Translations under genes and position numbers: made by a program | Assembly (NCBI GenBank): GCA_946414345.1 | Contig: CAMKOB010000010.1 | Location: forward strand, 1 to 40,275 | Direction of reading: 5' to 3' | DNA: 40,275 bases | DNA from: an uncultured Candidatus Saccharibacteria bacterium | GTDB lineage: Bacteria > Patescibacteriota > Saccharimonadia > Saccharimonadales > Saccharimonadaceae | The notes under the pieces: model-generated | Told to the model about the DNA's origin: nothing | The model's database searches: none | Seen by the model: only the letters and a program-made list of their open reading frames with translations | Shown here: piece after piece, positions 1-27,617 of the stretch | Numbering within the stretch: position 1 is the stretch's first letter | How the letters are laid out: the number at the start of each line of letters is the position of its first letter

Positions 1-110
1 GATGGTGTTGGGGATGGTGTTGGAGATGGTGTTGGAGATGGAGTTGGAGATGGCGTTGGAGATGGCGTTGGAGATGGTGTTGGAGATGGTGTTGGTTCTG
101 GTTCCGGAGT
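1..110 (-). repeat. Imperfect 12-bp tandem repeat coding for SPTP units
   Basis: About eight copies of a 12-bp unit (GGAGATGGTGTT-like on the plus strand) run to the window edge. In the frame of the large minus-strand gene they encode Ser-Pro-Thr-Pro repeats. Copies differ mainly at third positions, and the unit is a multiple of three, so copy number can change without a frameshift. The array may continue outside the window. Confidence 0.9.
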
Positions 111-3100
111 CCTGCCGACACACTTTTGGGCACAGCCAGGCATGTCATAGACGCACACGTCGCCGCCTTCCGCGCCATAGTACTTACGTACCCACCAGCC
201 AACGTTGCCCACGGGCTTTCCATTTTCACCTACTGGCAAGATTACAGTCTTTTCAGTTGATGCGTAATCTGTCAGGATAGCCCTATCTTCTACGCCAGGG
301 GTTGTGTATGTGGACATCCTATCTCCGATAGTATCCACTTCATAGTGGCCACCTTGAATTTTCTTTTCCATCTCGTTGATGGTAGCGTTAACCAAAGCAT
401 CATAGTGATCGGCGTTTTCTCTTTGTTTGAGTGCATCTAACAGAAGATTGAGTTCTCTATTACTATCAATTACGCCGTCCGAAATTCCCCATTCAATTAG
501 TTTTTCTTTTGGAATGATTTTTTCTAGAGCATCTGGTTCTAATAAGCCATAATTAGATGCATTCTGGCCCAACATGAATGCATCAGTACCAGTTTTGGCA
601 AGCGATTGCATGAGGTAGGCACCCTGTTCGTTGATATCCATTTTTCCATCACCATCGAAATCCCATGCGGTTGGCGTACCGAGGTATACCCTTCCTTCGA
701 TGTATGGGGTGTTCAACGAAGAGTCGTACTCTGCGTGATAACCACCACGATAGTCTAATTCTGGAACCTCTACGGTTTCTTCTCCGAGGCGAAGCACAGT
801 AGGAGCGCTACCATCCGCTTCGCTCTCGTAGAACATTGATGGGAGGCTATCTTTTGATATAACTACTGCTGTTTCGGCCGAAAGATCTTCACCTGGGGCT
901 TTAGGGGTTATGCGAGCAATAACTTCTTCTGTACCGGAAGCACCAGGTGCATCGCCTAGGGTATTGTGAGTTCTATGCATGGACGGTAGATTTCTTCCAA
1001 CACGAACACCTTTAAAGATTTCGCTAAGATTGCTAATCTTTTTGCCTTCTGCATTTACGGCAAATTGGCTAAGCGTTTCGCCAGTTTCGGTCCTTGTGGC
1101 CGTAAATGCAAAGCCCTTAGCGCTTGTTGCTACTTGGATAGTGTCTGATGGGTCTATACTCCTACCCGAGATGGTACCATATGAAATCAAGGTATTGCCA
1201 TCCATTACACCCACGCGAGCGGTGCCAAGGAAGCCAGCGGTGCCAAGGGCGTCTACGTTACTCGTGTCAAGTAGGCCGGCCGGTACTACAGCTCGCCCAT
1301 CCACAATGTCGAATTCTAGTGCCCCTCCTGAACCATTGCCGTCTAAGTCAATATATAGTTTGGTGCCATTTGGAATACCGTTACCATTCAAACCCCAGAC
1401 TGGCACTGAATAGGTTTCTGGACCATCGCCGCCAATACTATTTGAAACAGGTTGGCCAAAGGAGACGACGCCACTAGAGCTTCTACTCCAGTCAATGCCG
1501 CCAGAATTATCAACGACATTTTCGGCACTATTCATGTATTCGCTGACGGTGGTTGGCCGATAGCTATCGACGTCTACTGGTTCTCGCTTTAGCTCAATGC
1601 CCTGCTCCTTAAGCCTTCCATTTAATTCAGCAAATGATTTCGCGTCTGTCAAATTGATACCAGTTCCTTCAGTTTCGCTGTATAATATTTCGTCACCTTC
1701 ACCAAGGACGCCGTCTTTATTGATATCCCGACCAACCGTTAAGCCTTCCACGTTTGGGTCGTCCTCAATAAGGACTGCGGCGCGTTTGTTTGCTAATACT
1801 CGTTCAAACTCAACGTCCTTGGCTTCTTCCTGGCCTAGTAGATTCTTTTGAATTGCGTTTGGATTTTTCAGATTACGCAAAGCGGCTAAGCGTGGGTCTC
1901 GATTGTTGTGCAGAGTAGCCGTGCGTAGTTCTTGGTCCCTGCGAAAAGCAGCTAAGCGTGGGTCTTGAGCATTTGGATTTTGGCCACCAAAATCTTGATC
2001 CTGCTCATTTGCTTGGTTCGGAGTTTGGCGTACTAAGCGTTGTGCGCGCTTGTCTATATTAAAGGCGGTACCTTTTGTCCTTCCGATCCCTCCTCCGCCG
2101 CCTTTGGCATCTATTGCTTCTTGCATACCGTCTGTTTGCATCTGTTCGGTTGTAGCGCCACTATCAGTTGGTCTAAACCTCGCTTGCTCAGGATTAGCTA
2201 AGCGGACATTTTCTAATTGTTCAGCTTGTCTATTGCCATTGATGCCTAGTGCCATTTTAATGGTATCTCTTGCATTTCCTTTGGCCGCCTCGATTTTTTC
2301 CGTAGCGGATTCAATTGACTTTGCCGCACTGTTTATCGCGTTTTCTTTGGCAAGCCTGATTTTCTCCATAGTCGGATTGGTTACAGTCTCAATTTTTTCT
2401 TTAAGCGAATTGGTCACTGGCGATACTTTTTCACTGACTTGGCCAATTGCACGCGAAATAATTGGTGCTGCAAAGGATGCCAATACGGCGATTGTTCCAC
2501 CGGTTATTGCGCCACCAACTGTGTCCACAGCGATTTGTCTAGCCATGTATTTACGTTTTTCTTTGTCGGCAGCCTTTTGCATTTCTTCATATGCTTTTGC
2601 TCTACTAGTAATGCTCTCTTTGCTAATTTTAAAAGCATCTTGCGATTCTAGAAGCTTCCTGGCAGCGATCATTCTCTCGGCAAGAAGACGCCGTTCTTTA
2701 GCGACATTACCTCTACTAAATCTAATTAAGTCGATTTTTTTGTCCCGTGATACTTGATTGCGAGCCATGACATCCTCAATTGTAGCCAGTAGCGCTTCTC
2801 TTTGTTCTGGGGTGCCCCCTGACTCAACTTGCGCAATCTGGTCACCTAGTTCGTCAAAGATATCAGCTGCATCCTTACGGCCGCGCAGTTCGTTGATCTT
2901 CTTCGTATATTCTTCTGACTTTGAGGCCTTTTGTTTAACTTTATTAATAAAGGACATGGTTTTTCCGAATATAGCTTTAATCTCGGCTGGCGATCTTTTA
3001 ATTGGGATTTTTTCTCCGGTTGCTGGCTCAGAGGTGTTAGACGTTTTTTCGGCTGACGTTGTTGCGGCCGCATCCCTAGCTGGCGTTTCCACAGTCGTTT

Positions 3101-4472
3101 TGGCTGCCCCAACTTCCCTACCACTGGTAATGTCTTCTATTTCAGCTTTGGACACTGTTGTTTGGACTCGGCTGGCGCCGCGGACACCGCCGAAGACACC
3201 ACCTACGATAGCGCCCATAACTCCAGCCTTGGCTGTTTTAGAAAGCGAATCCAATAGACCGCCAACAGTCGTGTTGGCCGCCCCTCGGCCTTTGCGCATT
3301 GCTACTGAGTAGAAAACTCCACCAGCTAAACCACCGGCGGCGACTGCATATGCAATGTTATCTACTTTTTGTTTGGTATTAATTCCCTCTTGCATTCCTT
3401 GGGCACGGTACAGAGTAAAGTTCTTATCTAAATAATCTTCCAAACTCTTTTTGCCAATACCATCTTCGGCTAAGGCAACTACGCCCCTAGCAGCTTCGTC
3501 GAGTGCTTCCATAGAAGTTATTTCACGTTTGCTATGATCGCCAATTAAGAACCTGACTAGACCGGACTCGAAGAATTTGCTTCCGCCTTTGTCTTCGCCA
3601 AAGGCGCCAGTTTTTCGCAACTCGGCAATCGTTTGTTCGTATTCTTTTTGAGCTTTTTTTCTGGCTTTATCATTCTTTGCGTTTTGTGTCTGTTCAAAAA
3701 GAGTAGCGAGCGCAGCTTTAACTTCTTGTTGAACGGAATCTTCAACCTTGGTGATACTTTCACCTTGGTTAAGCGCAACGCTTTGGTCGGAATCTATGGT
3801 CGCCCCACTTTCGGTAAGACCGGCTTCTTCGATGGCGAGCCTGGCTCTCTCCCGAGTTTCTTTTGAGCTGTCGCCAGAGATGGCTTTGCTACCATCAAAT
3901 TCAAGACCCAGTGCTTTGTAGGCGTCTTTTATATCACCTGTTTTATCAACTGCCTTTATGGCCTTTACGTGATGAAATGCTGATGGTAAAGCCATTACCA
4001 CGCTGCTTATATAGGGGCTAACATAAGAAAGACCAAAGGAGAGTCTTGATGCAGAAAGCTTGCGTGACCTGTCCTTTGCATTTCTTTGTTCGATAGCTTC
4101 TTTAATGAGGTTGTCACGAGCGGTTTTATCAATATCGGTTAAGATAGTTGTTCCACCGAGCCTTTTGGCGATCATCTCTTCTTCCGACATGGGTTGAGCT
4201 ATATCTTCGATGTCTTCGATAATTTGCTCTTCTTCCGACGCAATTTGAGTTGCGGGCTCATTTTTTTCAGCACCTTGTTCTTCTTTTGATGCGGCGCGGA
4301 TGGCAGCCTCACCAAGTTTTTCGGCAATTTTCCTATCAACTTCTTGTGCTTCTGGATTGTTGGCTAAGGTTTCTGAGCCACCCGCCGAGGCTATGGATGT
4401 CGGGGCGTTGGCTGGGCTTTGACTAGCTCCAGCATTCCCTGTCGAGGCCATATTAGTACTATTGGGTGTCAT
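1..4472 (-). CDS. Giant orphan protein, 3' end beyond the window: glycine-zipper membrane segments, EF-hand-like loops, SPTP-repeat tail
   Basis: The frame from the ATG at 4472 stays open for 1490 codons to the window edge, so the C-terminus is missing. Residues 1-130 are polar and acidic, with no signal peptide. Hydrophobic, glycine-rich segments lie near residues 143-166, 372-391 (GGLAGG), 415-432 (GAIVGGVFGG) and 645-675 (GGAITGG), separated by charged, probably coiled-coil stretches. A 22-residue repeat begins with DPRLAA at 837 and 859. Three EF-hand or dockerin-like loops occur at 916-927 (DINKDG), 1042-1053 (DLDGNG) and 1271-1282 (DFDGDGKMDINE, a complete 12-residue loop). From about 1456 the protein becomes TPEPEPTP followed by SPTP repeats. 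The ATG directly follows the stop of the DUF5663-like gene, so the two are cotranscribed. I do not recognise the family. A large membrane or surface-exposed protein with calcium-binding loops and an extended linker is inference. Confidence 0.85.
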   Translation of the reverse strand, partial: MTPNSTNMASTGNAGASQSPANAPTSIASAGGSETLANNPEAQEVDRKIAEKLGEAAIRAASKEEQGAEKNEPATQIASEEEQIIEDIEDIAQPMSEEEMIAKRLGGTTILTDIDKTARDNLIKEAIEQRNAKDRSRKLSASRLSFGLSYVSPYISSVVMALPSAFHHVKAIKAVDKTGDIKDAYKALGLEFDGSKAISGDSSKETRERARLAIEEAGLTESGATIDSDQSVALNQGESITKVEDSVQQEVKAALATLFEQTQNAKNDKARKKAQKEYEQTIAELRKTGAFGEDKGGSKFFESGLVRFLIGDHSKREITSMEALDEAARGVVALAEDGIGKKSLEDYLDKNFTLYRAQGMQEGINTKQKVDNIAYAVAAGGLAGGVFYSVAMRKGRGAANTTVGGLLDSLSKTAKAGVMGAIVGGVFGGVRGASRVQTTVSKAEIEDITSGREVGAAKTTVETPARDAAATTSAEKTSNTSEPATGEKIPIKRSPAEIKAIFGKTMSFINKVKQKASKSEEYTKKINELRGRKDAADIFDELGDQIAQVESGGTPEQREALLATIEDVMARNQVSRDKKIDLIRFSRGNVAKERRLLAERMIAARKLLESQDAFKISKESITSRAKAYEEMQKAADKEKRKYMARQIAVDTVGGAITGGTIAVLASFAAPIISRAIGQVSEKVSPVTNSLKEKIETVTNPTMEKIRLAKENAINSAAKSIESATEKIEAAKGNARDTIKMALGINGNRQAEQLENVRLANPEQARFRPTDSGATTEQMQTDGMQEAIDAKGGGGGIGRTKGTAFNIDKRAQRLVRQTPNQANEQDQDFGGQNPNAQDPRLAAFRRDQELRTATLHNNRDPRLAALRNLKNPNAIQKNLLGQEEAKDVEFERVLANKRAAVLIEDDPNVEGLTVGRDINKDGVLGEGDEILYSETEGTGINLTDAKSFAELNGRLKEQGIELKREPVDVDSYRPTTVSEYMNSAENVVDNSGGIDWSRSSSGVVSFGQPVSNSIGGDGPETYSVPVWGLNGNGIPNGTKLYIDLDGNGSGGALEFDIVDGRAVVPAGLLDTSNVDALGTAGFLGTARVGVMDGNTLISYGTISGRSIDPSDTIQVATSAKGFAFTATRTETGETLSQFAVNAEGKKISNLSEIFKGVRVGRNLPSMHRTHNTLGDAPGASGTEEVIARITPKAPGEDLSAETAVVISKDSLPSMFYESEADGSAPTVLRLGEETVEVPELDYRGGYHAEYDSSLNTPYIEGRVYLGTPTAWDFDGDGKMDINEQGAYLMQSLAKTGTDAFMLGQNASNYGLLEPDALEKIIPKEKLIEWGISDGVIDSNRELNLLLDALKQRENADHYDALVNATINEMEKKIQGGHYEVDTIGDRMSTYTTPGVEDRAILTDYASTEKTVILPVGENGKPVGNVGWWVRKYYGAEGGDVCVYDMPGCAQKCVGRTPEPEPTPSPTPSPTPSPTPSPTPSPTPSPTPSPTP

Positions 4473-5006
4473 TTATTGCTCCGCCTCCTCTACAGTTTGA
4501 ATGTCCGCCACTTCTGAATCGTCTGACGAGCTTAAACCGTCTTCCGATTCTAGCTCGTCTTCCGGTTCTGGAGCGTCACCTAGATAAATATCACGAAAGC
4601 GGCCCATAGTAGCACCGATTATTTCTGCAGTGTTTAGACCGGCTTCTTCTACCATGTTTGCAATTATTTTTGGATCAATTTGGCCCTGCTCTGCAGCCAT
4701 ATTGTTCAGCTCGTCGATTTTATCATCAGGAAGTTCAGCAATTAAGGAACGGTCAAGTTCTTGAAGGAGTTTGCTCTTTAAATCCTGGAAGATGGTAGCT
4801 TGGATTTCATCACTACCAGCTGCCACACCTTTTTCTTCCATAATACCGTAGATAAAAATGTCGATTGCTTCTTCATCGGTAAGGTCTTCTGGAACTCCCG
4901 CATCCTGAGTTGGGGCAGTTGAATCAGCAACAACTGGTTGAGCAGTTGCGCCACTAGTAATATCAGTAGTGTCGGTTTGAGACACCGTAGCGTTAATATC
5001 GTCCAT
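4473..5006 (-). CDS. DUF5663-like acidic protein
   Basis: A 177-residue acidic protein. The ATG at 5006 is chosen because GGAAAGG lies about 10 nt upstream and a promoter sits just before it. An in-frame ATG at 5114 lies inside a terminator hairpin and is rejected. Residues 1-55 are low-complexity (T, A, D, Q rich). The middle, around 75-145, has the pattern of DUF5663 of Patescibacteria: Leu-rich helices, an ELPDDKIDELN segment and a final FRDIYLG. The last 30 residues are almost all E, D and S. The function of DUF5663 is unknown. The stop codon abuts the start of the giant gene, so this is the first gene of a two-gene unit. The family assignment is from recall of the pattern, not a search. 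Confidence 0.8.
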   Translation of the reverse strand: MDDINATVSQTDTTDITSGATAQPVVADSTAPTQDAGVPEDLTDEEAIDIFIYGIMEEKGVAAGSDEIQATIFQDLKSKLLQELDRSLIAELPDDKIDELNNMAAEQGQIDPKIIANMVEEAGLNTAEIIGATMGRFRDIYLGDAPEPEDELESEDGLSSSDDSEVADIQTVEEAEQ

Positions 5007-5687: not shown

Positions 5688-8582
5688 TTAAATCTTTTCT
5701 AATGACAAGGTGACGTTATCACCGTTGATTTTGACGATTTCGTCGTGGGCGTAGTTGGCATCTTTGGTAAATTCGTCGGTAAGAGTTTCAAATTTAACGA
5801 GGTTCTCGAAGCCTTTTGGTAAATCTATCGATAGTGACAGCTTGATGTGGTCATCCATGCTTAATTTGGCGTTCTTGCGAGCCGTCTGAATAGCGCGAAT
5901 GAGATCACGTGCGTAACCTTCCCTTTTGAGCTCGTCGGTTAAGGTTTTATCGAGAGCAAGTTTTTTGCCATTCTTGACTTTCTTAACGTTTACTTCTTCG
6001 GCAATGATTTGCTCGTAAAATTCTGGTAACTTTTCTCCAGCATAAATAAGACTTGCTAATGGTTGGCGGACCTTAATCTGCTCTTCGGTATCAGATTTTT
6101 GCATACGAAGAGCGAGGGCGTCTGTAATGATTTGGCGAGTTTCGGCCATTCTATCTAGTACTCCTTGATTAATCTTGCCAGCTTCTGGCCAAGACTCGAG
6201 ATGAACGGATTTATTTTTACCAGTCATCTTTTGATAAAGCTCTTCGGACAAAAATGGCACAAATGGCGCAAGGATTTTAGCTGTATAGATTAGAACGTAG
6301 TATAGAGTAGCATAAGCAGCTTGTTTGTCATCTTGGTCATCATTTTTATTAAAACGACGACGGGAGCGGCGAACGAACCAGTTGCTAAGGTCATCGATAA
6401 ATGGGAGGACGTCATCTAGAGCCTTTGGAATATTATATTCTTGCATGCCTTCGGTAATTTCATCTCTGAGCTCATACATGCGAGAAACGATCCAGCAGTC
6501 AAAAGGATTTGAAAGGGTGTTTTCGAATCCTTCTAAGTCTTCGCTGTCGATGTTGTCAATTTCGGCATAAGTAGTAAAGAAATCATAGACGTTCCAGAGC
6601 ATGGCAAGTTTACGATTGACATCGGAGACATCTTTATCGAGAAGAGCAAAATCTTCGCCAGACAAAACTGGGGAGCTAAGAAGCAAAAAGCGGAGAGCGT
6701 CGGCGGAATATTGATCCATCAAAACATTCGGATCAGTAAAATTGCCGAGAGATTTACTCATTTTGCGACCATCGTTTCCTGCTAGGGTGCCGGTTGTGAT
6801 GACGTTCTTATAGGCGTTTTTGTGGCCCTGCTGGGCTTTTTTACCAAAGGCGCCAATCTCGGCAAGTGCAGTATTGACTGTATGAACATAGTAGAACCAG
6901 GCGCGAACTTGACCGACGTATTCTACGATAAAATCGGCGGGATAGTTATGCTCGAATTTTTCTTTGTTTTCGAATGGATAGTGAAGTTGAGCAAACGGCA
7001 TGGAGCCAGATTCAAACCAACAGTCGAGGACCTTTTCGATGCGAGTAAAGTGCTCGCCGTCAATATCAAAGGTTATTTCATCCACCCATGGACGATGGTA
7101 GTCTTCGAGTCTTTTACCAGATAATTCATATAATTCATCATAACTACCGATGACCTTGATGTTACCTTTGTCGCCTTTCCAGACTGGCATAGCGGTGGCC
7201 CAGAAGCGGTCACGAGAGAGATTCCAATCTGGAGCTTGCTCAATGTTGTTAGCAAAGCGGCCGTGTTTTAGATATTCTGGGAACCAGTTGATGTTCTCAT
7301 TTTCGGCAAGCATGAGAGGTTTCTGACCTTCAACATCAAAGAACCAGGATGGAAAAGCGCGATACATGATGCGTTCTTTGCTGCGAGGGTTAAAAGGATA
7401 TTCGTGTTGAATGTATTCAATCCTGTAGACGATTCCCTTTTCTTCAAGGCATTTGGCGATGAATTTGTTGGCAGCCCAAATTTGGATACCATGCTCGTCG
7501 GTATCACGAACGCCAAGAGCATGAAGTCTTTCAGCATATTCCTTAATATAGTAGCCGTTCTCGTCAAGAGTATCAATAAAATCAATCTCGCCTTCGTGAG
7601 ATTTGTAAAGCTCGTAGTCGTCTTCGCCATAAGCTGGAGCAATATGAACAATGCCAGTACCCTCCTCAGAGCCAACGAAATCCGCAACAAAAACTTGGCA
7701 AATGGTGCCATCTAAGGACTCGTACTTAATACCTTCGAGATCTTTGCCTTTGATAGTTCTCTCTGGTTTGATCGAACCAAAAATGTGTTCAGCGCGTTTT
7801 TTGGCGACAACGAGTTTAGCACTGTCTATATTGTAAATGCCATATTCTAAATCTTTTGATACTGCAAGCGCGCGATTGGCCATTAGTGTCCATGGCGTGG
7901 TGGTCCAGGCTAAGAAACAATAATCTTCCGTAGTAGATTTAAATTTAACATATGCGCTGGGGTCAGTTACAGTCTGATAGGCATCATTATCCATAGTGAC
8001 TTCGGCCTTACTGACTGGCGTTGCGAACTTTGTATCATACATTAATACCTTGCGGCCTTCGTAGATTTTCCCTGCTTCATAAAGTTGTTTAAAAGCCCAC
8101 CAGACAGATTCCATAAAATCCTTGTTCATGGTACGATAACAGTTGTCAAAATCAACCCAGCGACCAATGCGGTCGATGGTGGAACGCCAGGTTTCGGAAT
8201 TGGCGACCATTGATTCGCGAGCCTTAGAGATGTAATCTTCAAGCGACCATTTGGTACCAATCTCACGGCGATCGGTGATACCAAGTTGCTTTTCAACAAA
8301 GTTTTCAGCTGGAAGACCATGGCAATCCCAACCCCAGCGACGCTCGACACGGTAGCCGTTCATAGTCCAGTAACGTGGAACTGCGTCTTTGACGATTGAG
8401 CTCAATAACGTACCGTGATGAGGATTACCAGTAATGAAGGGTGGGCCATCATAAAAAACATAGGATTTATCAATCGGGCGGCTTTCGACCGATTGTTCAA
8501 ATGTTTTGTTCTTTTTCCACCACTCAACGAGTGATTTTTCGTATTCGATGGCCTTGCGGCGCTCCCCAGCTCTATATTTCAT
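5688..8582 (-). CDS. ileS: Isoleucyl-tRNA synthetase
   Basis: Cytoplasmic class Ia synthetase that charges tRNA-Ile. The 964 residues start MKYRAGERR. The HIGH-type motif is PHHGT at 54-58 after DGPPFITGN, followed by WGWDCHGLP. The CP1 editing insert occupies roughly 190-400, and KMSKS is at 607-611 in GRKMSKSLGNF. The anticodon-binding helical region follows. No C-terminal CxxC zinc motif is seen, and the length fits the shorter form of the eukaryote-like (type 2) IleRS. The ATG is 6 nt after a TATAAT, which predicts a leaderless message; there is no ribosome site. It follows mscS after 32 nt but has its own promoter. Confidence 0.97.
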   Translation of the reverse strand: MKYRAGERRKAIEYEKSLVEWWKKNKTFEQSVESRPIDKSYVFYDGPPFITGNPHHGTLLSSIVKDAVPRYWTMNGYRVERRWGWDCHGLPAENFVEKQLGITDRREIGTKWSLEDYISKARESMVANSETWRSTIDRIGRWVDFDNCYRTMNKDFMESVWWAFKQLYEAGKIYEGRKVLMYDTKFATPVSKAEVTMDNDAYQTVTDPSAYVKFKSTTEDYCFLAWTTTPWTLMANRALAVSKDLEYGIYNIDSAKLVVAKKRAEHIFGSIKPERTIKGKDLEGIKYESLDGTICQVFVADFVGSEEGTGIVHIAPAYGEDDYELYKSHEGEIDFIDTLDENGYYIKEYAERLHALGVRDTDEHGIQIWAANKFIAKCLEEKGIVYRIEYIQHEYPFNPRSKERIMYRAFPSWFFDVEGQKPLMLAENENINWFPEYLKHGRFANNIEQAPDWNLSRDRFWATAMPVWKGDKGNIKVIGSYDELYELSGKRLEDYHRPWVDEITFDIDGEHFTRIEKVLDCWFESGSMPFAQLHYPFENKEKFEHNYPADFIVEYVGQVRAWFYYVHTVNTALAEIGAFGKKAQQGHKNAYKNVITTGTLAGNDGRKMSKSLGNFTDPNVLMDQYSADALRFLLLSSPVLSGEDFALLDKDVSDVNRKLAMLWNVYDFFTTYAEIDNIDSEDLEGFENTLSNPFDCWIVSRMYELRDEITEGMQEYNIPKALDDVLPFIDDLSNWFVRRSRRRFNKNDDQDDKQAAYATLYYVLIYTAKILAPFVPFLSEELYQKMTGKNKSVHLESWPEAGKINQGVLDRMAETRQIITDALALRMQKSDTEEQIKVRQPLASLIYAGEKLPEFYEQIIAEEVNVKKVKNGKKLALDKTLTDELKREGYARDLIRAIQTARKNAKLSMDDHIKLSLSIDLPKGFENLVKFETLTDEFTKDANYAHDEIVKINGDNVTLSLEKI

Positions 8583-8588
8583 TCTATA

Positions 8589-8597
8589 ATTATACCA
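8589..8597 (-). promoter_or_regulatory. Extended -10 promoter of ileS
   Basis: TGGTATAAT, preceded by ATA, exactly 6 nt before the ATG at 8582. No -35 is seen. The expected transcript begins at the start codon. Confidence 0.75.
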
Positions 8598-8614
8598 TAT
8601 TTTAGGTAGACGAG

Positions 8615-9412
8615 CTATTTTTCGTGGATGACAAGGTGTTCGTACGGAAGACGTAATTTATGAGAGGCTAGGGTTCTCACAATTGTCTGAAGCGCCTCAC
8701 GATTAACTGCTAGTTTATTGGCTGGATCACAAGTAATAGCAATTTGATAATTCAGAGTTGATTCCGCAATAGAATTAAGACCTTGATATTCACAGGTTTT
8801 AACGGCTTCTTGACCTTTAATCTCTTTTGTGATTTCGGCCATGAGGAAATCGGCAGCGTTTGGTTTAATTTCGAATGGTAATGGAACAGTAATATAGAGG
8901 TATTCGGAAACAATTTCTGCTTGATCGATATTGCGGTTGGCAATGGATACAATATTCATAGTATTCATATCTTGAATCTTGGTAGTACGCAGTCCGATAG
9001 ATAGCACCTCCCCGACATTGTCGCCATATTTAACATAATCGCCAATGTCATAGTAACCATCTGATATAATTTCAAAACCGCGGATAATATCTTTTAAGGC
9101 ATCCTGGAGAGCAAAACCGATAACGATTGAGGCGATACCAACACCGGCGAGCATAGAGCTAACGTTGATGCCGAAAATCTGAAGTATAGTAAGAAATGTA
9201 ACAACACCCAAGACAGCACCCGTGACGTTTCGAAACATCCGGAGATAAGTTTTGTTCTTTTTGCTGCTTAAAATTTTAGAGTTCTTTTTTTCTTTTGCTT
9301 TAAAAAATTTGGAGATAATGACGTAGATCGTACAGCTTAAAATAATAATAAGTATCGCCCATATAATACGCTCGAAGAGCCCACTCTTTACGATATCCTC
9401 GAAAATATTCAT
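8615..9412 (-). CDS. mscS: MscS-family mechanosensitive channel
   Basis: Small-conductance mechanosensitive channel of the cell membrane that releases solutes on osmotic downshock. The product is 265 residues from the ATG at 9412. That start is preferred over an upstream in-frame ATG at 9490 because TATAAT lies exactly 6 nt before it. There are membrane segments at about 13-35 and 55-80. The third, MscS-type pore helix follows as the small-residue-rich SSMLAGVGIASIVIGFALQD, then KDIIRGFEII and the beta domain (DIGDYVKYG) and C-terminal alpha/beta domain. The length matches E. coli MscS (286 aa). It lies 23 nt after the thioredoxin-like gene. Confidence 0.92.
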   Translation of the reverse strand: MNIFEDIVKSGLFERIIWAILIIILSCTIYVIISKFFKAKEKKNSKILSSKKNKTYLRMFRNVTGAVLGVVTFLTILQIFGINVSSMLAGVGIASIVIGFALQDALKDIIRGFEIISDGYYDIGDYVKYGDNVGEVLSIGLRTTKIQDMNTMNIVSIANRNIDQAEIVSEYLYITVPLPFEIKPNAADFLMAEITKEIKGQEAVKTCEYQGLNSIAESTLNYQIAITCDPANKLAVNREALQTIVRTLASHKLRLPYEHLVIHEK

Positions 9413-20075: not shown

Positions 20076-20687
20076 TTACGTGTTTTCACAATAAACACCG
20101 CCGGCCTCCATGCGATAAAGGACAGCAACGTTACGAGCATTAAGGGATCTTTTTGCATCTTCGCCGTCGCAGATAGCCTCGACCACGACAAGCATCGTGT
20201 AACTGAGTGTGTTTTCCTTAAAAGTTCCACTTTTTATACTATCAAGTTCCGGATTGGGGCAACGACGTTCGGTGGACGCACTGCACTTTACAACATTTAG
20301 ATTATATCTTGGACCATCCGGATCAGCAAAGTTTTTGCCGAGATAACCCTCCATAAATCCATACCAACCAGTGTCGGAACCAATGATGCTATTAGTTTTT
20401 GTATTATCGACTTCTCCATCATCTTTATAAACAACAGTGATGGTTTTTGGTTCATCAAATAGTTTTTTCTCATCTCCAGAGCTACCCGGTAACGCCCCGC
20501 GAGAGTTGTTGGTTTGATAGTTCTTGAGTTCACGAATGAAGGTCATGACATCCGTGCGACGTTCGTTGTCGCGTTCGTCTGCCCATACACCGTTTAAGGC
20601 AATAAAAATTGCGGCAAAAATCGCACCAGAAATCGCAAGAACGAGCACAACCTCCACCATTGTAAAACCTTTAATTCTTTGTTTCAT
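20076..20687 (-). CDS. Type IV prepilin-like protein
   Basis: 203 residues with a class III signal: basic MKQRIK, then the cleavage site G|FTMVEVVLVLAIS with Glu at mature position 5, then a hydrophobic helix to about residue 30. The extracellular part carries D-rich loops and cysteine pairs (CSASTERRC; ICDG ... VYC). The C-terminal block NVAVLYRMEAGGVYC closely parallels the pilin at 24630-25280 (HFAVLYRLENSSIYC), so the two are paralogues. The gene is divergent from the prepilin peptidase gene, with TATAAT 6 nt before its ATG (leaderless). It could be a major or minor pilin. Confidence 0.92.
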   Translation of the reverse strand: MKQRIKGFTMVEVVLVLAISGAIFAAIFIALNGVWADERDNERRTDVMTFIRELKNYQTNNSRGALPGSSGDEKKLFDEPKTITVVYKDDGEVDNTKTNSIIGSDTGWYGFMEGYLGKNFADPDGPRYNLNVVKCSASTERRCPNPELDSIKSGTFKENTLSYTMLVVVEAICDGEDAKRSLNARNVAVLYRMEAGGVYCENT

Positions 20688-20693
20688 GGTTTT

Positions 20694-20702
20694 ATTATAT
20701 CA
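20694..20702 (-). promoter_or_regulatory. Extended -10 promoter of the prepilin gene
   Basis: TGATATAAT exactly 6 nt before the ATG at 20687. It is back to back with the pilD promoter; only 12 bp separate the two -10 hexamers. Confidence 0.75.
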
Positions 20703-20708
20703 AAAAAA

Positions 20709-20717
20709 TGGTAAAAT
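20709..20717 (+). promoter_or_regulatory. Extended -10 promoter of pilD
   Basis: TGGTAAAAT exactly 6 nt before the pilD ATG at 20724, again predicting a leaderless message. The polymerase footprint must overlap that of the divergent prepilin promoter. Confidence 0.7.
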
Positions 20718-20723
20718 TAAAGC

Positions 20724-21500
20724 ATGCAGGTTGTGTTTTTAATTATGATGTTTGTGGTCGGTGCGTGCATAGGATCGTTTCTTTGCTGTGGGGCACGCAG
20801 AACTCGCGAAAAAGAACTTGGCCGAAAAAAACTCGGTTCGCGTTCGGTTTGCTTAAAATGTGGTCATAGGCTTAGTTGGTGTGAAAATATTCCGATATTA
20901 TCGTGGATTATGCTACGAGGTAAATGTAGAAGATGCAAGGCAAGGATTGGATATCTTGAAATTTTTTCCGAAGTTGCGACGGCTATCATTATGACTCTGA
21001 TTGCAACTACGATAGACACTACCAATGCCGGTTTAATCGATTGGTTGCTTTTTGGAAGCCTTTTTTTATTAACTAGTGCTTTGGTTTTTTTAGCCTTGTA
21101 TGACGGAATGTACGGTGAGCTCCCGGTAGGCGTTTTGGGAGTGGCCGCTGCGTTTGCTTTATTATACTCCATAATAAGAATAATAAATGGCGAAATAGAT
21201 GTTGTGGGCGCTATTATTTCGATGATAATCTTAGGTGGACTATATCTCGTATTGTTCTCTGGGTCAAGGGGAAAATGGGTTGGTGATGGGGACTGGATAC
21301 TTGCTGGTATAATTGGATTTGCATTGGGCCAACCTTTTTATGCTTTACTAACACTATTTATTTCAAACTTTTCTGCATGTATCATTATGTGGCCATATGT
21401 TAGAAAATCCAAAAACCATAAAATATATTTTGGACCATTTTTGGTTTTTGGTTTTATCGTATCGCTTATGGTTATAAACTATGATATAATAAACATATGA
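20724..21500 (+). CDS. pilD: Prepilin peptidase (leader peptidase and N-methyltransferase)
   Basis: Polytopic aspartic protease that cleaves the prepilin leader and methylates the new N-terminus. The 258 residues include an N-terminal hydrophobic segment with GACIGSFLCC. The cytoplasmic zinc-binding four-cysteine domain reads CLKCGHRLSWCENIP ... CRRC. About six further membrane helices follow. The two catalytic aspartates are in ALYDGMYGELP and GDGDWIL. All functional residues are present. The gene overlaps the following pilin-like gene by 4 nt (ATGA), so the peptidase and a substrate are translationally coupled. Confidence 0.95.
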   Translation: MQVVFLIMMFVVGACIGSFLCCGARRTREKELGRKKLGSRSVCLKCGHRLSWCENIPILSWIMLRGKCRRCKARIGYLEIFSEVATAIIMTLIATTIDTTNAGLIDWLLFGSLFLLTSALVFLALYDGMYGELPVGVLGVAAAFALLYSIIRIINGEIDVVGAIISMIILGGLYLVLFSGSRGKWVGDGDWILAGIIGFALGQPFYALLTLFISNFSACIIMWPYVRKSKNHKIYFGPFLVFGFIVSLMVINYDIINI

Positions 21501-23644
21501 AGTTTAAACTTGGTGATACATTGATTGAGGTTGCGCTTGCGATCGGTATTTTTTCGATGGTGGCAATTGCGGTAGTTTCGGTGATGAGCGGAAGCATGTC
21601 GAGTGCTCAGTCTGCGCTTGAGCTCACGTTGACAAGAGAAGAAATGGATGCACAGGCCGAGGCGCTTCGTTTCATTCAGACGTCATACATTGCGAGTGGA
21701 GACACGAGTCTTGGTAACAACACTAAATACGCTCAACTATGGCACGAAATTGCAGATAGAGCAAAGGAGCCAACTAAAGAAATTCTTGAATTTCACCCAT
21801 CTTCCTGTAATAGTTTATATAGTGGCAGTAATCTTGATAGGCAAGGGGCTTTTGTGATCAATACGCGGAATCTTGGTTACAACATAGGAAACAGTTCATA
21901 TAATGATACGATTTCTATAGACAGTATTATTATAAAGCCGCAAAACAACGGAGGCATTTTCAGCCCCGCAGCTACATTCCCAAGATTAGTTTTTAAGGAA
22001 AAAGACACGGTGAATGGTGGCTTTATCAATGATAATACTTTGTTAGATCGCGACAATACGCCCAATCTCGCTGCCGTTGAGGGTATTTATGTGGTGCCGG
22101 TTAGAGACAATTACACTACGACAATTGTGGACGGAGGAGAAGTTGACGATGCTGTGTCGGCCTATTATGATTTTTATATTAGAACCTGTTGGTTTGCCAC
22201 TGGAGCTACTCGACCATCCACTATCTCTACAGTTGTTCGTTTATACAATCCAGATGCATTAGCAACTTATGATTTCAAGGATACCATAGTGCTTTCATTT
22301 GCTCCAAACGATTCGGATAGTGCGATTAAGGTTGATAGGGTAATGGACTCCATATCTCTATTCCCTGGTGAAACCATTACACTCCCAGGAGAAGAAGAGA
22401 CTTTTACTCGTACTGGGTTTGATTTTGTGGGGTGGAGCACGAAGCGCAATAGCACGCCAGAAGAAACTCGGGCTGGCATAGTGAATGGTACGGCTGGTTT
22501 TTATACTTACGGCTCCCAGTTTACAGCACCGACGCGTTCACGCTCTGGTAGAGTAACACTTTACGCAATTTGGGAAGCGAAACCATTTAGGATTCGTTTC
22601 ACGTTTAGTCCAAATGGTGCCGTAAATGCCGCTGGAGAGCCATTACAAAAGAGCGACCAGGTGATTGACGGTGTCACGGTTGGCTCTACTGTTACGATTA
22701 AGAATAATAACGAGCTCGTTGATGGTGACGATGTATTTGCAAAAGAAGACTTCTTCTTTGGTGGTTGGGAAGACCAGAGTACACACGAAGTATATAATAC
22801 GACAAATGCCTATGAGTACACTATTACGAAGTACGGCATAGAGAAAATAGACGAGGGCGGTGAACTATATGTTGAATTAGTGGTCAATCTTAATGCAGTA
22901 TGGAAGAAGCCATTTACGCGATTGTTTTATGAGGGCACAAAAATCGATCCACAGGAGTGTAGCCCTACTAGGGGTTGTTATATAACAACGCAGACTCCGT
23001 CCGAAATTGGCTTAATATTTACCAACTGGTGTACCAAAAAAGTGACCAATTATGTTACATGCACAGGCAAGACTTATCTGCCCGGTGATTATTACCCAGC
23101 AATCTCAAGAGACACAAAGCTATACCCGACTTGGAAACTTGAGGAATTCTGGGTGGATGCAAATATTTATGTAAATTGCGAAAAGCTCCAATCCGGTAAG
23201 GAAGGATTTAATATAAAAACGTATATTGATGGCCAGGAAGTCGATAGGTCTAGGCATAATGAAATCTTTAATGGAACTAAGATTAGACTTACTGATATCG
23301 ATTTCTATCAACCAGTAGAATTCAGTAGACTAGTACGAATTGAATTCTATGACGTTGAAGGATACCATATAGTAAATGAAGATACAATTTGCGAAAAGAT
23401 GCCAGAGAAATCATATTGTTCAGCGCATCGAGAGGACGGAATGCTAGTGGTTGAATTAACTGTTTATAATATTCCGGATGGAGCCGATTTAAATTCCACC
23501 AACCAATACGCTATTGATGTTGAGCCGCATTGGGTTTCTGATGAGCCGATGGCGTTAGAGGAAGGTGTTAAAGTATGTAGCGATTTGGAGTGGGAACCTC
23601 TCACTGAGCCCGAAGAAGAACCTGCTGTTGAGCCTGGAGAGTAG
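21497..23644 (+). CDS. Giant pilin-like adhesin with InlB-type repeats
   Basis: 715 residues. The N-terminus MKFKLGDTLIEVALAIGIFSM is a class III (prepilin) signal, with cleavage likely after G6 and Glu at mature position 5. The pilin-like head continues to about residue 270 and has few cysteines. From 280 on come three beta-rich InlB/Listeria-Bacteroides-type repeats. The first, 280-357, is classic (TFTRTGFDFVGWST, FTAPTR, VTLYAIWEA). The second, about 360-472, has FFGGWED and LNAVW, and the third, about 474-551, has FTNWC and LYPTW. The tail to 715 is beta-rich and ends in Glu/Pro-rich sequence (EPEEEPAVEPGE). It overlaps pilD by 4 nt. It is probably assembled at the pilus tip as an adhesin. 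The pilin and repeat calls are direct from sequence; the tip position is inference. Confidence 0.88.
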   Translation: MKFKLGDTLIEVALAIGIFSMVAIAVVSVMSGSMSSAQSALELTLTREEMDAQAEALRFIQTSYIASGDTSLGNNTKYAQLWHEIADRAKEPTKEILEFHPSSCNSLYSGSNLDRQGAFVINTRNLGYNIGNSSYNDTISIDSIIIKPQNNGGIFSPAATFPRLVFKEKDTVNGGFINDNTLLDRDNTPNLAAVEGIYVVPVRDNYTTTIVDGGEVDDAVSAYYDFYIRTCWFATGATRPSTISTVVRLYNPDALATYDFKDTIVLSFAPNDSDSAIKVDRVMDSISLFPGETITLPGEEETFTRTGFDFVGWSTKRNSTPEETRAGIVNGTAGFYTYGSQFTAPTRSRSGRVTLYAIWEAKPFRIRFTFSPNGAVNAAGEPLQKSDQVIDGVTVGSTVTIKNNNELVDGDDVFAKEDFFFGGWEDQSTHEVYNTTNAYEYTITKYGIEKIDEGGELYVELVVNLNAVWKKPFTRLFYEGTKIDPQECSPTRGCYITTQTPSEIGLIFTNWCTKKVTNYVTCTGKTYLPGDYYPAISRDTKLYPTWKLEEFWVDANIYVNCEKLQSGKEGFNIKTYIDGQEVDRSRHNEIFNGTKIRLTDIDFYQPVEFSRLVRIEFYDVEGYHIVNEDTICEKMPEKSYCSAHREDGMLVVELTVYNIPDGADLNSTNQYAIDVEPHWVSDEPMALEEGVKVCSDLEWEPLTEPEEEPAVEPGE

Positions 23645-23673
23645 GATTATTAGTTTTTTATTTTGCAAGACGT

Positions 23674-24612
23674 TTATTTGGTCTCGGAATGATATTTTTC
23701 GTGGATATCACGCAGGTGCGCATCAGTAACATGGGTGTAGATTTGGGTGGTTGAAATATCTGCGTGACCAAGCATCGACTGAACGCTACGAAGATCCGCA
23801 CCGTTCATGAGGAGGTCAGTAGCAAAGGAGTGTCTCAGTGTGTGCGGCGATACATGTTTAGTGATACCGGCAAGACGAGCATATTTTTCGACAATCCTTT
23901 CAACACTACGAGCGGTCATGCGGCGATAGTCACCAGTTGTATCGGCGGTTTGGAGATTGCGTGAATTATTGAGGAAGAGAGCCGGCAAAGAATCAGTGCG
24001 GGCGTCGAGATAATCTCTCACTCGGTCGGCACAGGCTTGCGAAATAAAAATAGGACGATCTTTGGAACCTTTGCCGCGCACCATAAATTCGCGACGTTCG
24101 AGATTGATTGAGTCGCGATTAAGACCCACGAGCTCTGAGACACGGAGTCCACCAGAATATAGCAACTCAATGATGGCGCGATCTCTCAAGCCTGACTCTG
24201 TGGATAGGTCAATTTGTTCGAGCATATCTTCAACTTCGTCATAGTGCAAAAAAGTTACTTGCTTTCGTACGACGTGTGGTAGTTCTACTAGCGACGGATC
24301 CAATGATTTAATTTCACGACGTGCAAGATACTTAAGAAAGCCTCTTAATGCTATCAAGTGGTAGGCTTGAGTGATAGTTTTTAAGTCCTCTTCGCCGTTG
24401 GATGTGCCGTAGCGATTGAGCTTGAGCCGATAGCGCCTGAGCAGTTCCCTTGTGATGTCACTGGCTTTGACGCTATCTTTGTTGAGGATTTCGCTGGCGA
24501 TTTCGTAGAATCGTTCTAAGTATAGGCGATAGTTCTCGATAGTTTTCTTACTACGCCCTGCTTCTATTTCAAGGTGTTCCAAAAAGTCTTCAATGAGTTC
24601 CAGTATATCCAT
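23674..24612 (-). CDS. xerD: Tyrosine recombinase, XerC/XerD type
   Basis: 312 residues with an N-terminal SAM-like core-binding domain at 1-105 and a catalytic domain at 120-300. All catalytic residues are present: R157 (SGGLRVSEL), K181 (GKGSKDR), H257 and R260 (PHTLRHSF), H283 (GHADI) and Y292 (IYTHV). Length and motifs match the chromosome-dimer resolvases, and ftsK, their partner, is also in this window. It follows a pilin gene by 17 nt without a ribosome site; a small ATACC-TTAC-GGTAT hairpin overlaps the start. A mobile-element integrase is less likely because no other element genes are near. XerC versus XerD cannot be decided. Confidence 0.93.
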   Translation of the reverse strand: MDILELIEDFLEHLEIEAGRSKKTIENYRLYLERFYEIASEILNKDSVKASDITRELLRRYRLKLNRYGTSNGEEDLKTITQAYHLIALRGFLKYLARREIKSLDPSLVELPHVVRKQVTFLHYDEVEDMLEQIDLSTESGLRDRAIIELLYSGGLRVSELVGLNRDSINLERREFMVRGKGSKDRPIFISQACADRVRDYLDARTDSLPALFLNNSRNLQTADTTGDYRRMTARSVERIVEKYARLAGITKHVSPHTLRHSFATDLLMNGADLRSVQSMLGHADISTTQIYTHVTDAHLRDIHEKYHSETK

Positions 24613-24629
24613 ACCGTAAGGTATTAAAA

Positions 24630-25280
24630 TTAGTCAGAATCGCCGCAGTAGATACTGGAGTTTTCTAGACGATACAAGACGGCAAAATGACGAAGTTCTG
24701 ATTTGACAGCACGCTCGCCGTCACACTTGGCCCCTGGGATAATATAGATTACGTGTGCCTTTAATGGATCATCGCCTTGAATCGTAGCGTATTGAGTCGA
24801 GCCATCAACATCGAAATGAAGACTACTATTGCTCGATAAGTTCGCAATGCTCGTCGGTTGCAAATTAGCGTTTGACGCCGTCGCCCAGTTTTCTGTAATG
24901 ACCATATTATATGCAAAACCATCTGGATCGATGAATAGGTTTTGGTTGTCTGCTACTGAGTCGGTCGTATTGAGGTAGTTTCTGATAAAACTACAGGCGG
25001 TGCTACTGCTACAATCCGTCGGAAAACCTTCATCGTTGTCTGCAAATCCGATGGTACCCGGCCCAGGAAGATTATTGCGCCTAGACTTGTTGTTGGTTTG
25101 ATACTGCACTAGAGCACTCTGCACGCGAGACATTGCTTGGCGACGCTCGGTATCGCGCTGGCCAGCCATAGCCTGCGGTAGGACGAAGAAGACCATTAAG
25201 AAGATAAGACCGGCAATTGCGAGCACGAGCACAACTTCGATAATCGTAAAGCCTTTCTTTTGTTTTAATTTGTTGCTCAT
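24630..25280 (-). CDS. Type IV prepilin (candidate major pilin)
   Basis: 216 residues: basic leader MSNKLKQKKG, cleavage before FTIIEVVLVLAIAG with Glu at mature position 5, hydrophobic helix to about 35, then a globular head. Cysteines include CSSSTAC, KCDG and the final YCGDSD, probably disulfide-bonded. Its end, HFAVLYRLENSSIYC, is paralogous to the pilin at 20076. AAAGGATT precedes the ATG and the gene is 36 nt after pilC in the pilus cluster, so this is the better candidate for the main subunit. Confidence 0.92.
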   Translation of the reverse strand: MSNKLKQKKGFTIIEVVLVLAIAGLIFLMVFFVLPQAMAGQRDTERRQAMSRVQSALVQYQTNNKSRRNNLPGPGTIGFADNDEGFPTDCSSSTACSFIRNYLNTTDSVADNQNLFIDPDGFAYNMVITENWATASNANLQPTSIANLSSNSSLHFDVDGSTQYATIQGDDPLKAHVIYIIPGAKCDGERAVKSELRHFAVLYRLENSSIYCGDSD

Positions 25281-25316
25281 TGAATTAATCCTTTCTTTTT
25301 GCTTATTCTTATATTA

Positions 25317-26528
25317 TCACATAGAAACTGAATTGACAAGTGAATAAATTGGCAAAAGTGTGCCACCGACCACAACGCCAATAAGTCCTGCCATAACAAC
25401 CATAAGAATTGGCTCAATCATGGTAGAAATGTTACTGATTTTCTCATCTAGCTCATTCTCGTAGACCTGAGCCGCCTTGCCAAGCATTTCGTCAATTTTA
25501 CCAGATTGTTCACCGATACCAGCCATTTGCGGGATGAGTGGGAGCATATATTGTCTTTCGGCGAGCGATTCGGAAAGTGGCTTGCCACCTTTAATGAGAG
25601 CGAGAGACTCTCGGAAATCTTCTTCGACGACAATATTGTTAATAGCATCAATCGAAATTGTAATGGAGTCTAGCAATGGAACACCAGTAGCAATCATCAT
25701 CTCGGCAGTACGCGCAAAACGTGAAACATAAAGTTTGCGAAAGAGACCACCAAAGATGGGAACACGTATTTTAAACCAGTCAAAGGTACGACGGCCCCAT
25801 GGTGTGGAACGGAAGGCGTAAAAAACACCGCCAATCACCGACACAAGTATAATAAGAACTAGCCACCAGTACTCACCAAAGAAATTAGTCATACTGACGA
25901 GTGCTTGGGTAAGAGCTGGCAGTTCACCACCCATATCTTGGTATAAACTCTCTACTTGTGGGACTACCGCAATCATCATGAAGGCAAGTACAGCTATAAT
26001 AACAAATAAAATAATAGCTGGATAGACGAGAGCGCCTTTGATTTTGCTCATCATGGCAGCATCTTTCTCGTCTTGATCAGCGAGACGTTTCAGAGCGAGA
26101 TCCAAAGTACCGGAAGCTTCACCAGCTTGAATAAGGGCAAGATAGACGCCGTTAAAAACTTTTGGATGGTCAGAAAAGGCCTCATAGAGACTCTTACCTG
26201 ATTCTACTGCAGTGATGATTTCTTCAGCGACTTCTTTCATACCTTTACTTTGGGTTTGTTCTGCGACAGTACGAAGCGAGGCGGATAGTGGGAGGCCGGC
26301 GCCAATTAAGGTAGAGAGCTGACGAGTGAAGATAATACGATCTTTGCCTCTAACACGTTTAGTCATTTTAACAAATGGGTCGTTGGCGCCTTCTTCTACG
26401 ACGCTGTCCGGGATGTAACCCTGTTCGATTAGAAGTTGCCCAGCAGTTTGTTCGTTCTCGGCCTGGATGCTCCCCTTAACAATCTTGCCGGTGGATTTAT
26501 CTTTGGCTTTATAGTTAAAACGCTTCAT
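25317..26528 (-). CDS. pilC: Type IV pilus inner membrane platform protein PilC
   Basis: 403 residues with two T2SS-F domains, each followed by membrane segments. The first has GKDRIIFTRQLSTLIGAGLPLSASLRT, then the hydrophobic AIILFVIIAVLAFMMIAVV. The second has SRFARTAEMMIATGVPLLDSI and a final hydrophobic GVVVGGTLLPIYSLV. It starts with MKRFNYKAKDKSTGKIVKG, the typical PilC opening. The ATG follows the pilT stop directly, with GAGGGGG inside the end of pilT. It transmits motor action of PilB and PilT to pilin assembly. Confidence 0.96.
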   Translation of the reverse strand: MKRFNYKAKDKSTGKIVKGSIQAENEQTAGQLLIEQGYIPDSVVEEGANDPFVKMTKRVRGKDRIIFTRQLSTLIGAGLPLSASLRTVAEQTQSKGMKEVAEEIITAVESGKSLYEAFSDHPKVFNGVYLALIQAGEASGTLDLALKRLADQDEKDAAMMSKIKGALVYPAIILFVIIAVLAFMMIAVVPQVESLYQDMGGELPALTQALVSMTNFFGEYWWLVLIILVSVIGGVFYAFRSTPWGRRTFDWFKIRVPIFGGLFRKLYVSRFARTAEMMIATGVPLLDSITISIDAINNIVVEEDFRESLALIKGGKPLSESLAERQYMLPLIPQMAGIGEQSGKIDEMLGKAAQVYENELDEKISNISTMIEPILMVVMAGLIGVVVGGTLLPIYSLVNSVSM

Positions 26529-27599
26529 CTACCCCCTCACAAAACGGTTTAGTTGATTGATATCTACGGCATATTCACGAGCAGAATCATAACTGATGAC
26601 ATTAGTACGGACAAGTTGGGCAAGAGTTTTATCCATAGTCTGCATGCCTTCGGAAGCACCGGTTTGAATGGCGGTATCGATTTGATAAGTTTTACCTTCA
26701 CGAATAAGTGCGCGAATACCGGCATTGGCAATCATGATTTCGGTCGCAGCTACACGGCCGCCATTTATGGCAGGGACGAGGCGTTGGGAACAAATAGCCA
26801 TTAGCATATTGCTAAGCTGGGTACGTACCTGGGGCTGCTGGTGAGATGGGAACACGTCGATAATACGGTCAATTGATTGTGCAGCAGAATTGGTATGGAG
26901 CGTTGCGAAGACTAAGTGGCCGGTTTCAGCAATAGTAATAGCGGCTTGAATTGTTTCAAGGTCGCGCATCTCGCCGATTAGAACTACATCTGGATCCTCA
27001 CGCAGTACAGAACGCAGAGCGGCGCCAAAGCTAAAAGTATCGTAGTGCACTTCCCTTTGTGCCACAACCGAACGTTGAGATTTGTGTGTAAATTCAATTG
27101 GGTCTTCGATAGTAATAATGTGGCAAGATTTTTCGTGGTTAATTTTATCAATAAGCGCAGCAAGAGTAGTAGATTTACCAGAGCCCGTGGGGCCAGTGAC
27201 AAGCACTAAACCACGTGGATAATCGGCAAACGTTTCAACAATGGTCGGCATACCGAGTTCACTGATGCTACGAATTTTATTTGGAATGAGACGAAAAGCG
27301 GCTGCCATTTTGCCGCGTTCATGAAAGGCATTAACACGAAAACGCGCAATATCGCCAAAAGCAAAGGAATAATCGAATTCTTTGTCTTTGAGGAAAATTT
27401 TCTGTTGCTCTTCATCGAGAGTTGCAAAAATAAGATTTTTGATTATTTCGTCGGTTAGTGGCGTATAACCACTAACCGGAACCAATACTCCATCAACTCT
27501 GAAGATTGGTGGCAGGCCATATTGAAGGTGAATATCTGAGGCGCTGCGCTTAACGCATTCTTCCAATAACAATTCGATTTTTGGCCCACTATTTTCCAT
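26529..27599 (-). CDS. pilT: Pilus retraction ATPase PilT
   Basis: 356 residues, the normal length. SASDIHLQYGLPPIFRVDG is in the N-terminal domain, Walker A is GPTGSGKSTTL, and the Asp box and Walker B lie around DPDVVLIGEMRDLETI. The His box is TGHLVFATLHTN, and the retraction-specific AIRALIREGKTYQID and QTGASEGMQTMD near the C-terminus separate it from PilB. TATAAT lies exactly 6 nt before the ATG, within 18 nt of the pilB stop, so pilT can be transcribed separately from the main operon as a leaderless message. Confidence 0.97.
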   Translation of the reverse strand: MENSGPKIELLLEECVKRSASDIHLQYGLPPIFRVDGVLVPVSGYTPLTDEIIKNLIFATLDEEQQKIFLKDKEFDYSFAFGDIARFRVNAFHERGKMAAAFRLIPNKIRSISELGMPTIVETFADYPRGLVLVTGPTGSGKSTTLAALIDKINHEKSCHIITIEDPIEFTHKSQRSVVAQREVHYDTFSFGAALRSVLREDPDVVLIGEMRDLETIQAAITIAETGHLVFATLHTNSAAQSIDRIIDVFPSHQQPQVRTQLSNMLMAICSQRLVPAINGGRVAATEIMIANAGIRALIREGKTYQIDTAIQTGASEGMQTMDKTLAQLVRTNVISYDSAREYAVDINQLNRFVRG

Positions 27600-27605
27600 A
27601 ATTTC

Positions 27606-27614
27606 ATTATACCA
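27606..27614 (-). promoter_or_regulatory. Internal extended -10 promoter of pilT
   Basis: TGGTATAAT in ATATGGTATAAT, between the pilB stop and the pilT ATG, exactly 6 nt from the ATG. It would uncouple pilT-pilC-pilin expression from pilM-pilB. Confidence 0.7.
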
Positions 27615-27617
27615 TAT

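What the first reader, a model, noticed from the sequence alone, without database searches (positions are those of the whole stretch)
1..4472. Unrecognised giant protein mixing glycine-zipper segments, EF-hand-like loops and a Ser-Pro-Thr-Pro tail
At least 1490 residues with no recognised domain. GGLAGG, GAIVGGVFGG and GGAITGG segments suggest membrane insertion or helix packing without a signal peptide. Three DxDxDG-type loops suggest calcium binding in the C-terminal half. A long SPTP array would be a stiff linker or wall-crossing stalk. It is paired with a DUF5663-like gene. Such size in a reduced genome implies strong selection, possibly for contact with the host.
Basis: partly seen in the sequence, partly recalled or inferred. 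Interest (0 to 1): 0.65.

Follow-up and report, generated by a model that had tools for sequence, protein, structure and literature searches.

The report
Giant membrane-anchored stalk protein of Saccharibacteria
This is a giant, previously unclassified membrane protein of an ultrasmall symbiotic bacterium that, with a small partner gene, belongs to a two-gene family spread across the Patescibacteria; in this form it probably anchors in the cell membrane and holds a calcium-binding head and a long repeat stalk outside the cell.

Summary
Window 3-4472(-) encodes at least 1490 aa without a curated domain. It has three glycine-zipper segments, two canonical EF-hand loops plus a third DxDxDG loop, and an SPTP array that runs off the contig. 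The remaining 175 aa (end of the array, acidic tail) and the next gene, an LPNTG/DUF11 surface protein, lie on contig C16 of the same genome. Homologues (1300-1679 aa) sit in the same operon in related Saccharibacteria, mostly gut MAGs: small DUF5663-like gene, giant, LPxTG/DUF11 gene. The repeat chemistry differs between species (SPTP, ESIP, GTGxE, PTP); stalk position and tail are conserved. The N-terminal ~480-aa core folds confidently in AlphaFold (pTM 0.80) and has no clear PDB match. The same core is found in giants at a second locus in other Saccharibacteria and in other Patescibacteria classes. It is nearly always directly preceded by the small gene, but has other C-termini (several glycosyltransferase-like). 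The core-plus-small-gene pair is therefore an unrecognised Patescibacteria module. The window carries a variant whose C-terminus is an EF-hand head, stalk and tail. Most likely function: envelope-anchored surface stalk or adhesin. Export, topology and host contact are inferred, not shown.

The parts
3..4472 (-). Giant ORF (1490 aa in window; continues on contig C16 for about 175 more aa)
4473..5006 (-). Small DUF5663-like partner gene (177 aa from the ATG at 5006, preceded by AAAGGAAAGG; the ORF listing also gives an upstream ATG at 5114)
   Evidence: sequence; alignments; hhalign to PF18908-type proteins
2403..4169 (-). N-terminal helical core (aa 102-690), shared with other Patescibacteria giants
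   Evidence: AlphaFold pLDDT 81, pTM 0.80; HMM and hhalign homology
3300..3356 (-). Glycine-rich hydrophobic segment 1 (aa 373-391, IAYAVAAGGLAGGVFYSVA)
3165..3227 (-). Glycine-zipper segment 2 (aa 416-436, GxxxGxxxGxxxG invariant)
2457..2525 (-). Hydrophobic segment 3 (aa 650-672); in the family its N-side is strongly positive, consistent with N-in/C-out
1754..2402 (-). Low-complexity insertion (aa ~691-906; coiled-coil-like and QDPRLAAxR repeats), mostly absent from homologues other than G163
   Evidence: alignment; L069 protein
1692..1727 (-). EF-hand-type loop 1 (aa 916-927, DINKDGVLGEGD)
1314..1349 (-). DxDxNG loop 2 (aa 1042-1053, DLDGNGSGGALE); conserved position in G163, G220, G206
1047..1775 (-). 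Beta-rich domain (aa ~900-1142); a weak Ig/MG-like sandwich match at aa ~1001-1104
   Evidence: Z 5.9, rmsd 2.8, 76 aligned
627..662 (-). Canonical EF-hand loop 3 (aa 1271-1282, DFDGDGKMDINE), followed by helices
3..95 (-). SPTP tandem array (aa ~1460 to contig edge), start of the stalk

Best explanation
The gene encodes a membrane-anchored cell-surface stalk protein, the derived surface form of a Patescibacteria-wide two-gene module. The helical core with its glycine-zipper segments sits in and on the cytoplasmic membrane, probably as an oligomer, and the small DUF5663-like protein is its cytoplasmic partner (adaptor or chaperone). The third hydrophobic segment carries the C-terminal half to the outside. 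There a beta-sandwich/EF-hand head, stabilised by Ca2+, is followed by a repeat stalk of variable composition that crosses the wall and presents an acidic tail, working together with the LPNTG/DUF11 protein encoded next. Shown: gene anatomy, conservation of pair and operon, homology of core and tail, EF-hand signatures. Inferred: topology, oligomer, Ca2+ binding, partnership, surface exposure. Speculative: attachment to a host bacterium.
For: Three-gene operon (small gene, giant, DUF11/LPxTG gene) between ileS and rplU/parA in relatives; 27 small-large-surface triples in fetched loci; DUF11 E 2e-8; two sortases in the own genome. 70 of 75 small genes lie within 60 bp of an ORF of at least 400 aa on the same strand, and three of the five exceptions are at contig ends. 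In the core family, segment 3 has mean charge about +3.6 on the N-side and -0.9 on the C-side outside giant-B, and +2.6/-0.1 in giant-B, as expected for N-in/C-out. Short homologues at the same locus have one hydrophobic segment with a basic N-side and the same tail. Repeat chemistry differs (SPTP, ESIP, GTGxE, PTP) while stalk position and tail persist, as for a spacer. EF-hand loops. N-core model pTM 0.80. Literature: giant membrane proteins proposed for host attachment in Vampirococcus (PMC8080830); adhesins needed for epibiotic growth in Southlakia (PMC10633639, PMC11665869).
Against: No signal peptide. The glycine-rich segments are only marginally hydrophobic, and segments 1 and 2 show no clear positive-inside pattern. 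Core homologues in other Patescibacteria carry C-terminal glycosyltransferase-like domains that normally work in the cytoplasm, which conflicts with C-out topology for the whole family. No fold or sequence match to a known adhesin for the core. The C-half model is of moderate quality (pLDDT 62). Nothing here measures localisation, calcium or binding.
Confidence: 0.5

Rival explanations
1. Envelope-biogenesis platform. The core is a membrane scaffold that organises cell-surface glycan assembly (hence the GT2/GT9-like C-termini in other Patescibacteria). In the window the enzyme part has been replaced by a wall-binding head and stalk, so the protein is a structural envelope tether and not an adhesin.
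For: GT2-like domains in four C-termini (L079, L197, L198, L200) and GT9 in L209; one core giant per genome at conserved housekeeping loci; DUF11/LPxTG neighbour and sortases.
Against: The GT-like matches are weak (E 1.8e-3 to 3e-7) and half of the twelve core giants scanned have none; no glycan genes adjoin the window operon.
Confidence: 0.25
2. Translocated effector or secretion-associated protein. The small gene is a chaperone, the glycine-zipper segments insert into a target membrane, and the variable C-termini are payloads (polymorphic-effector-like architecture).
For: Conserved core plus variable C-terminus plus small upstream partner; no signal peptide; one locus (L204) lies within T4SS genes (VirB4-like E 6e-28, VirB2 pilin E 3e-7).
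Against: Only one of the inspected Patescibacteria loci showed T4SS genes nearby (not every neighbour was scanned); the sites are stable housekeeping neighbourhoods; no immunity-like gene; the EF-hand/stalk/tail resembles a surface protein, not a toxin domain.
Confidence: 0.12
3. Phage-derived tape-measure-like protein (long helices plus glycine-rich hydrophobic segments).
For: The weak top Foldseek hits among viral models include tape-measure proteins (best E 0.02, TM 0.10).
Against: No tail or structural genes nearby; conserved position between ileS and rplU; no consistent PHROGs match; TM-scores near 0.1 mean no shared fold.
Confidence: 0.02

Closest known systems
Giant membrane proteins of Vampirococcus lugosii (Absconditabacteria; PMC8080830)
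   Same: Size range (1392-4163 aa), predicted membrane localisation, proposed role in host recognition; DUF11 domains mentioned among the adhesion domains
   Different: Those are described by WD40, PKD, fibronectin, DUF11 and other known domains; no shared core or DUF5663-like partner is described, and homology was not tested here
Wall-anchored Gram-positive adhesins with repeat stalks (e.g. MSCRAMM/SD-repeat proteins such as ClfB)
   Same: Head, low-complexity repeat stalk, surface-protein operon partner with LPxTG; the ClfB model rings only on the Pro-rich stretch
   Different: The giant has no signal peptide and no LPxTG; it is anchored from its N-terminal half by glycine-zipper segments with the stalk towards the C-terminus
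DUF5663 (PF18908) proteins
   Same: The small partner is a distant relative (hhalign E 8e-8)
   Different: Not detected by the Pfam model itself; DUF5663 proper sits next to def/fmt-like genes in the same genomes, separate from the giant pair

Membership tests
EF-hand calcium-binding loops | 12-residue loop D-x-[DNS]-x-[DENSTG]-G-x-[LIVM]-x(3)-[DE] | tested here: met
   aa 916 and 1271 match; 0.02 expected per shuffle; loop 3 conserved in G163, G336, G220, G206
EF-hand calcium-binding loops | Helix-loop-helix geometry and Ca2+ coordination | tested here: inconclusive
   Helices follow loop 3 in the model, but local confidence is moderate and no coordinates were available; the best profile hit among PDB sequences is an EF-hand protein at E 0.31 (not significant)
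DUF5663 (PF18908), small partner | Pfam profile match above the gathering score | tested here: not met
   No hit at E up to 1 for window:4473-5114
DUF5663 (PF18908), small partner | Remote homology of profiles | tested here: met
   hhalign E 8e-8, probability 94.5, 95 columns
LPxTG/MSCRAMM surface adhesins (giant) | N-terminal Sec signal peptide | tested here: not met
   Polar, Ser/Asn/Ala-rich N-terminus; first hydrophobic segment only at aa ~144
LPxTG/MSCRAMM surface adhesins (giant) | C-terminal LPxTG, hydrophobic segment, basic tail | tested here: not met
   The C16 part ends in an acidic tail ...EGFNFD without such a segment; the LPNTG sits in the next gene
Patescibacteria core-giant module (defined here) | Core profile match plus small gene directly upstream | tested here: met
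   also 10 of 14 loci in other Patescibacteria classes. The window core is itself a row of the profile.
T4SS component | Located among virB4/virB2 genes | tested here: not met
   Not in the window neighbourhood; seen only at L204
Any known fold (N-terminal core) | Significant structural match | tested here: inconclusive
   Foldseek best E 0.31; second look best Z 5.9 over 82 residues

The most novel reading that the evidence does not exclude
The core plus DUF5663-like pair is a Patescibacteria-specific membrane machine: a glycine-zipper scaffold that displays or delivers interchangeable C-terminal modules (GT-like, kinase-like, or calcium head plus stalk) at the contact with other cells. It would be a class of envelope system with no counterpart in other bacteria.
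Probability: 0.25. Interest if true: 0.85.

Novelty: new variant of a known kind. Interest (0 to 1): 0.62.

Why it matters
How Patescibacteria hold on to and exploit their hosts is a central open question, and few envelope proteins of this huge group have been classified. A single giant gene per genome, paired with a small partner and found across several classes despite extreme genome reduction, is a strong candidate for a core envelope function. The profiles and operon rules found here make it testable, first by checking whether cultivated, genetically tractable Saccharibacteria carry it. Switching of C-terminal modules on a conserved core, and rapid turnover of stalk repeats with a conserved tail, would suggest adaptation at a contact surface.

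Tried and rejected
A single-sequence scan of named genome contigs found nothing; the profile scan found eight loci, all from MAGs titled Candidatus Saccharibacteria. Pfam, NCBIfam, PHROGs and PDB sequence searches gave no family for the giant. Foldseek against PDB and viral models gave no E below 0.001; aligner Z-scores up to 5.9 are uninformative for long helices and partial domains. The A6 profile did not find the window's own giant, so the link between the two locus types rests on hhalign, reciprocal HMM hits with other members of the window's type and the joint profile. Tape-measure origin rejected. DUF5663 is mentioned in no held paper. The record of Nanosynbacter TM7x was not in the collections, so presence in cultivated species was not tested. 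An earlier count gave 59/67 genomes for the small gene in the genus; recounting one search gives 67 of 75.

Full report
Observation. Window 3-4472 on the minus strand is one open frame of 1490 codons, cut by the contig end. The window is the whole of contig C10 of an 861-kb genome in 29 contigs. Pfam and NCBIfam give no domain; the one NCBIfam match below 0.1 is the Pro-rich stretch to an 'exception' model. The glycine motifs are constrained: in six full-length homologues (the other five with 23-31% identity to the window), G381/G384, G420/G424/G428/G432 and G654/G658 are invariant. The EF-hand-type loops at aa 916 and 1271 fit the canonical pattern; 500 shuffles never reach two.

Missing end. 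The SPTP repeat occurs at only two places in the genome: the start of C10 (the window) and the end of C16. C16 continues with the array, a 175-aa C-terminal part, a 485-aa secreted protein with PF01345 DUF11 (E 2e-8) and LPNTG, and rplU, with ParA and ParB further on, in the order seen in relatives. An HMM built only from tails of other species' short proteins matches the C16 tail at E 1.8e-26 and none of 300 shuffles. The join is thus supported three ways. Array length is unknown; the protein has at least 1665 aa.

Locus and relatives. In the same genus, giants of 1300-1510 aa have the same arrangement: small DUF5663-like gene, giant, DUF11/LPxTG gene, between ileS and rplU/parA. Two more divergent giants (L137, 1679 aa; L159, 1620 aa) share the C-half and are followed by the surface gene. 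Named matches of this type come from gut Saccharibacteria MAGs, mostly of ruminants. Other genomes carry short proteins (about 450-650 aa, one hydrophobic segment) at this site with the same kind of tail and partner. Two genomes (G003, G122) have both a short and a giant pair side by side. Stalk chemistry is exchanged freely: SPTP in the window, ESIP repeats in the nearest relative G163, GTGxE, PTP or EPTP elsewhere.

A wider family. A profile of the N-half found giants at a second locus (next to rpsA/infB-like genes) in other Saccharibacteria. Homology is supported by hhalign (E 8e-26 over 657 columns; cores E 5e-16) and by reciprocal HMM hits in core and beta domain. The small-gene profile rings in 138 of 294 sampled genomes of the class, and in 67 of the 75 same-genus genomes listed. 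Of 75 strong small-gene hits in fetched loci, 70 are followed within 60 bp on the same strand by an ORF of at least 400 aa; three of the other five are at contig ends. The joint core profile finds 50 of 294 genomes in the class and 16 genomes of other classes in a phylum-wide sample (two of them marginal). In 10 of 14 loci inspected there, the small gene again directly precedes the giant. Giants of the window's type form one clade (11 sequences, support 1.0). The own genome has a single core giant and a single small gene.

Structure. With 36 sequences the core (aa 101-690) folds as a helical domain at pLDDT 81 and pTM 0.80. Searches of solved structures give no clear match, which does not prove a new fold. 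The C-half (12 sequences) is of moderate quality: a beta-rich part followed by a helical region after EF loop 3; aa ~1001-1104 weakly resemble Ig/MG-type sandwiches (Z 5.9, rmsd 2.8, 76 residues).

Topology. Segment 3 has a strongly positive N-side in all groups, fitting N-in/C-out; segments 1 and 2 give no clear signal. Short homologues with one hydrophobic segment and a basic N-side support an external C-terminus for this locus type. The unresolved conflict is the glycosyltransferase-like C-termini of several family members, which would be expected inside. Either those members have another topology, or the domain is not a conventional glycosyltransferase, or C-out is wrong for them.

Mechanism. 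The best reading is an N-anchored surface stalk: zipper scaffold in the membrane, small cytoplasmic partner, Ca2+-stabilised head, repeat spacer through the wall, acidic tail, together with the DUF11/LPxTG neighbour. Sortases are encoded in the genome. Published work supports the setting but not this protein: giant membrane proteins are proposed to mediate attachment in Vampirococcus (PMC8080830), and several adhesins are needed for epibiotic growth in Southlakia (PMC10633639, PMC11665869). Confidence is 0.5 because localisation, calcium binding and attachment are all unmeasured.

Verdict. The finding is real, larger than reported, and part of an unclassified two-gene family that reaches several Patescibacteria classes. 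Function remains inferred.

Noticed in passing
window 20076-32950: Type IV pilus-like cluster (pilin-like genes, prepilin-peptidase-like, PilC/PilT/PilB-like, PilM/N/O-like), named from sequence by eye
   Followed up: no
window 21497-23644 (+): 715-aa pilin-like N-terminus fused to what look like Listeria-Bacteroides-type repeats; possibly a pilus-tip adhesin
   Followed up: no
L027 14776-17121 (contig C16): 781-aa membrane protein with a Flg_new repeat between rplU and ParA; a 629-aa protein with a similar N-terminus lies further along (6908-8797)
   Followed up: partly
L204 2504-5802: A core/small-gene pair lies inside a type IV secretion locus (VirB4-like and VirB2-like genes) in another Patescibacteria class
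   Followed up: partly
L079, L197, L198, L200, L209: Core giants in other lineages end in glycosyltransferase-like domains; L075 also shows a weak AceK-kinase-like match
   Followed up: partly
L069 4721-9227, contig end: The nearest relative replaces SPTP by an ESIP repeat that also breaks its contig, so such arrays are probably often truncated in MAGs
   Followed up: no
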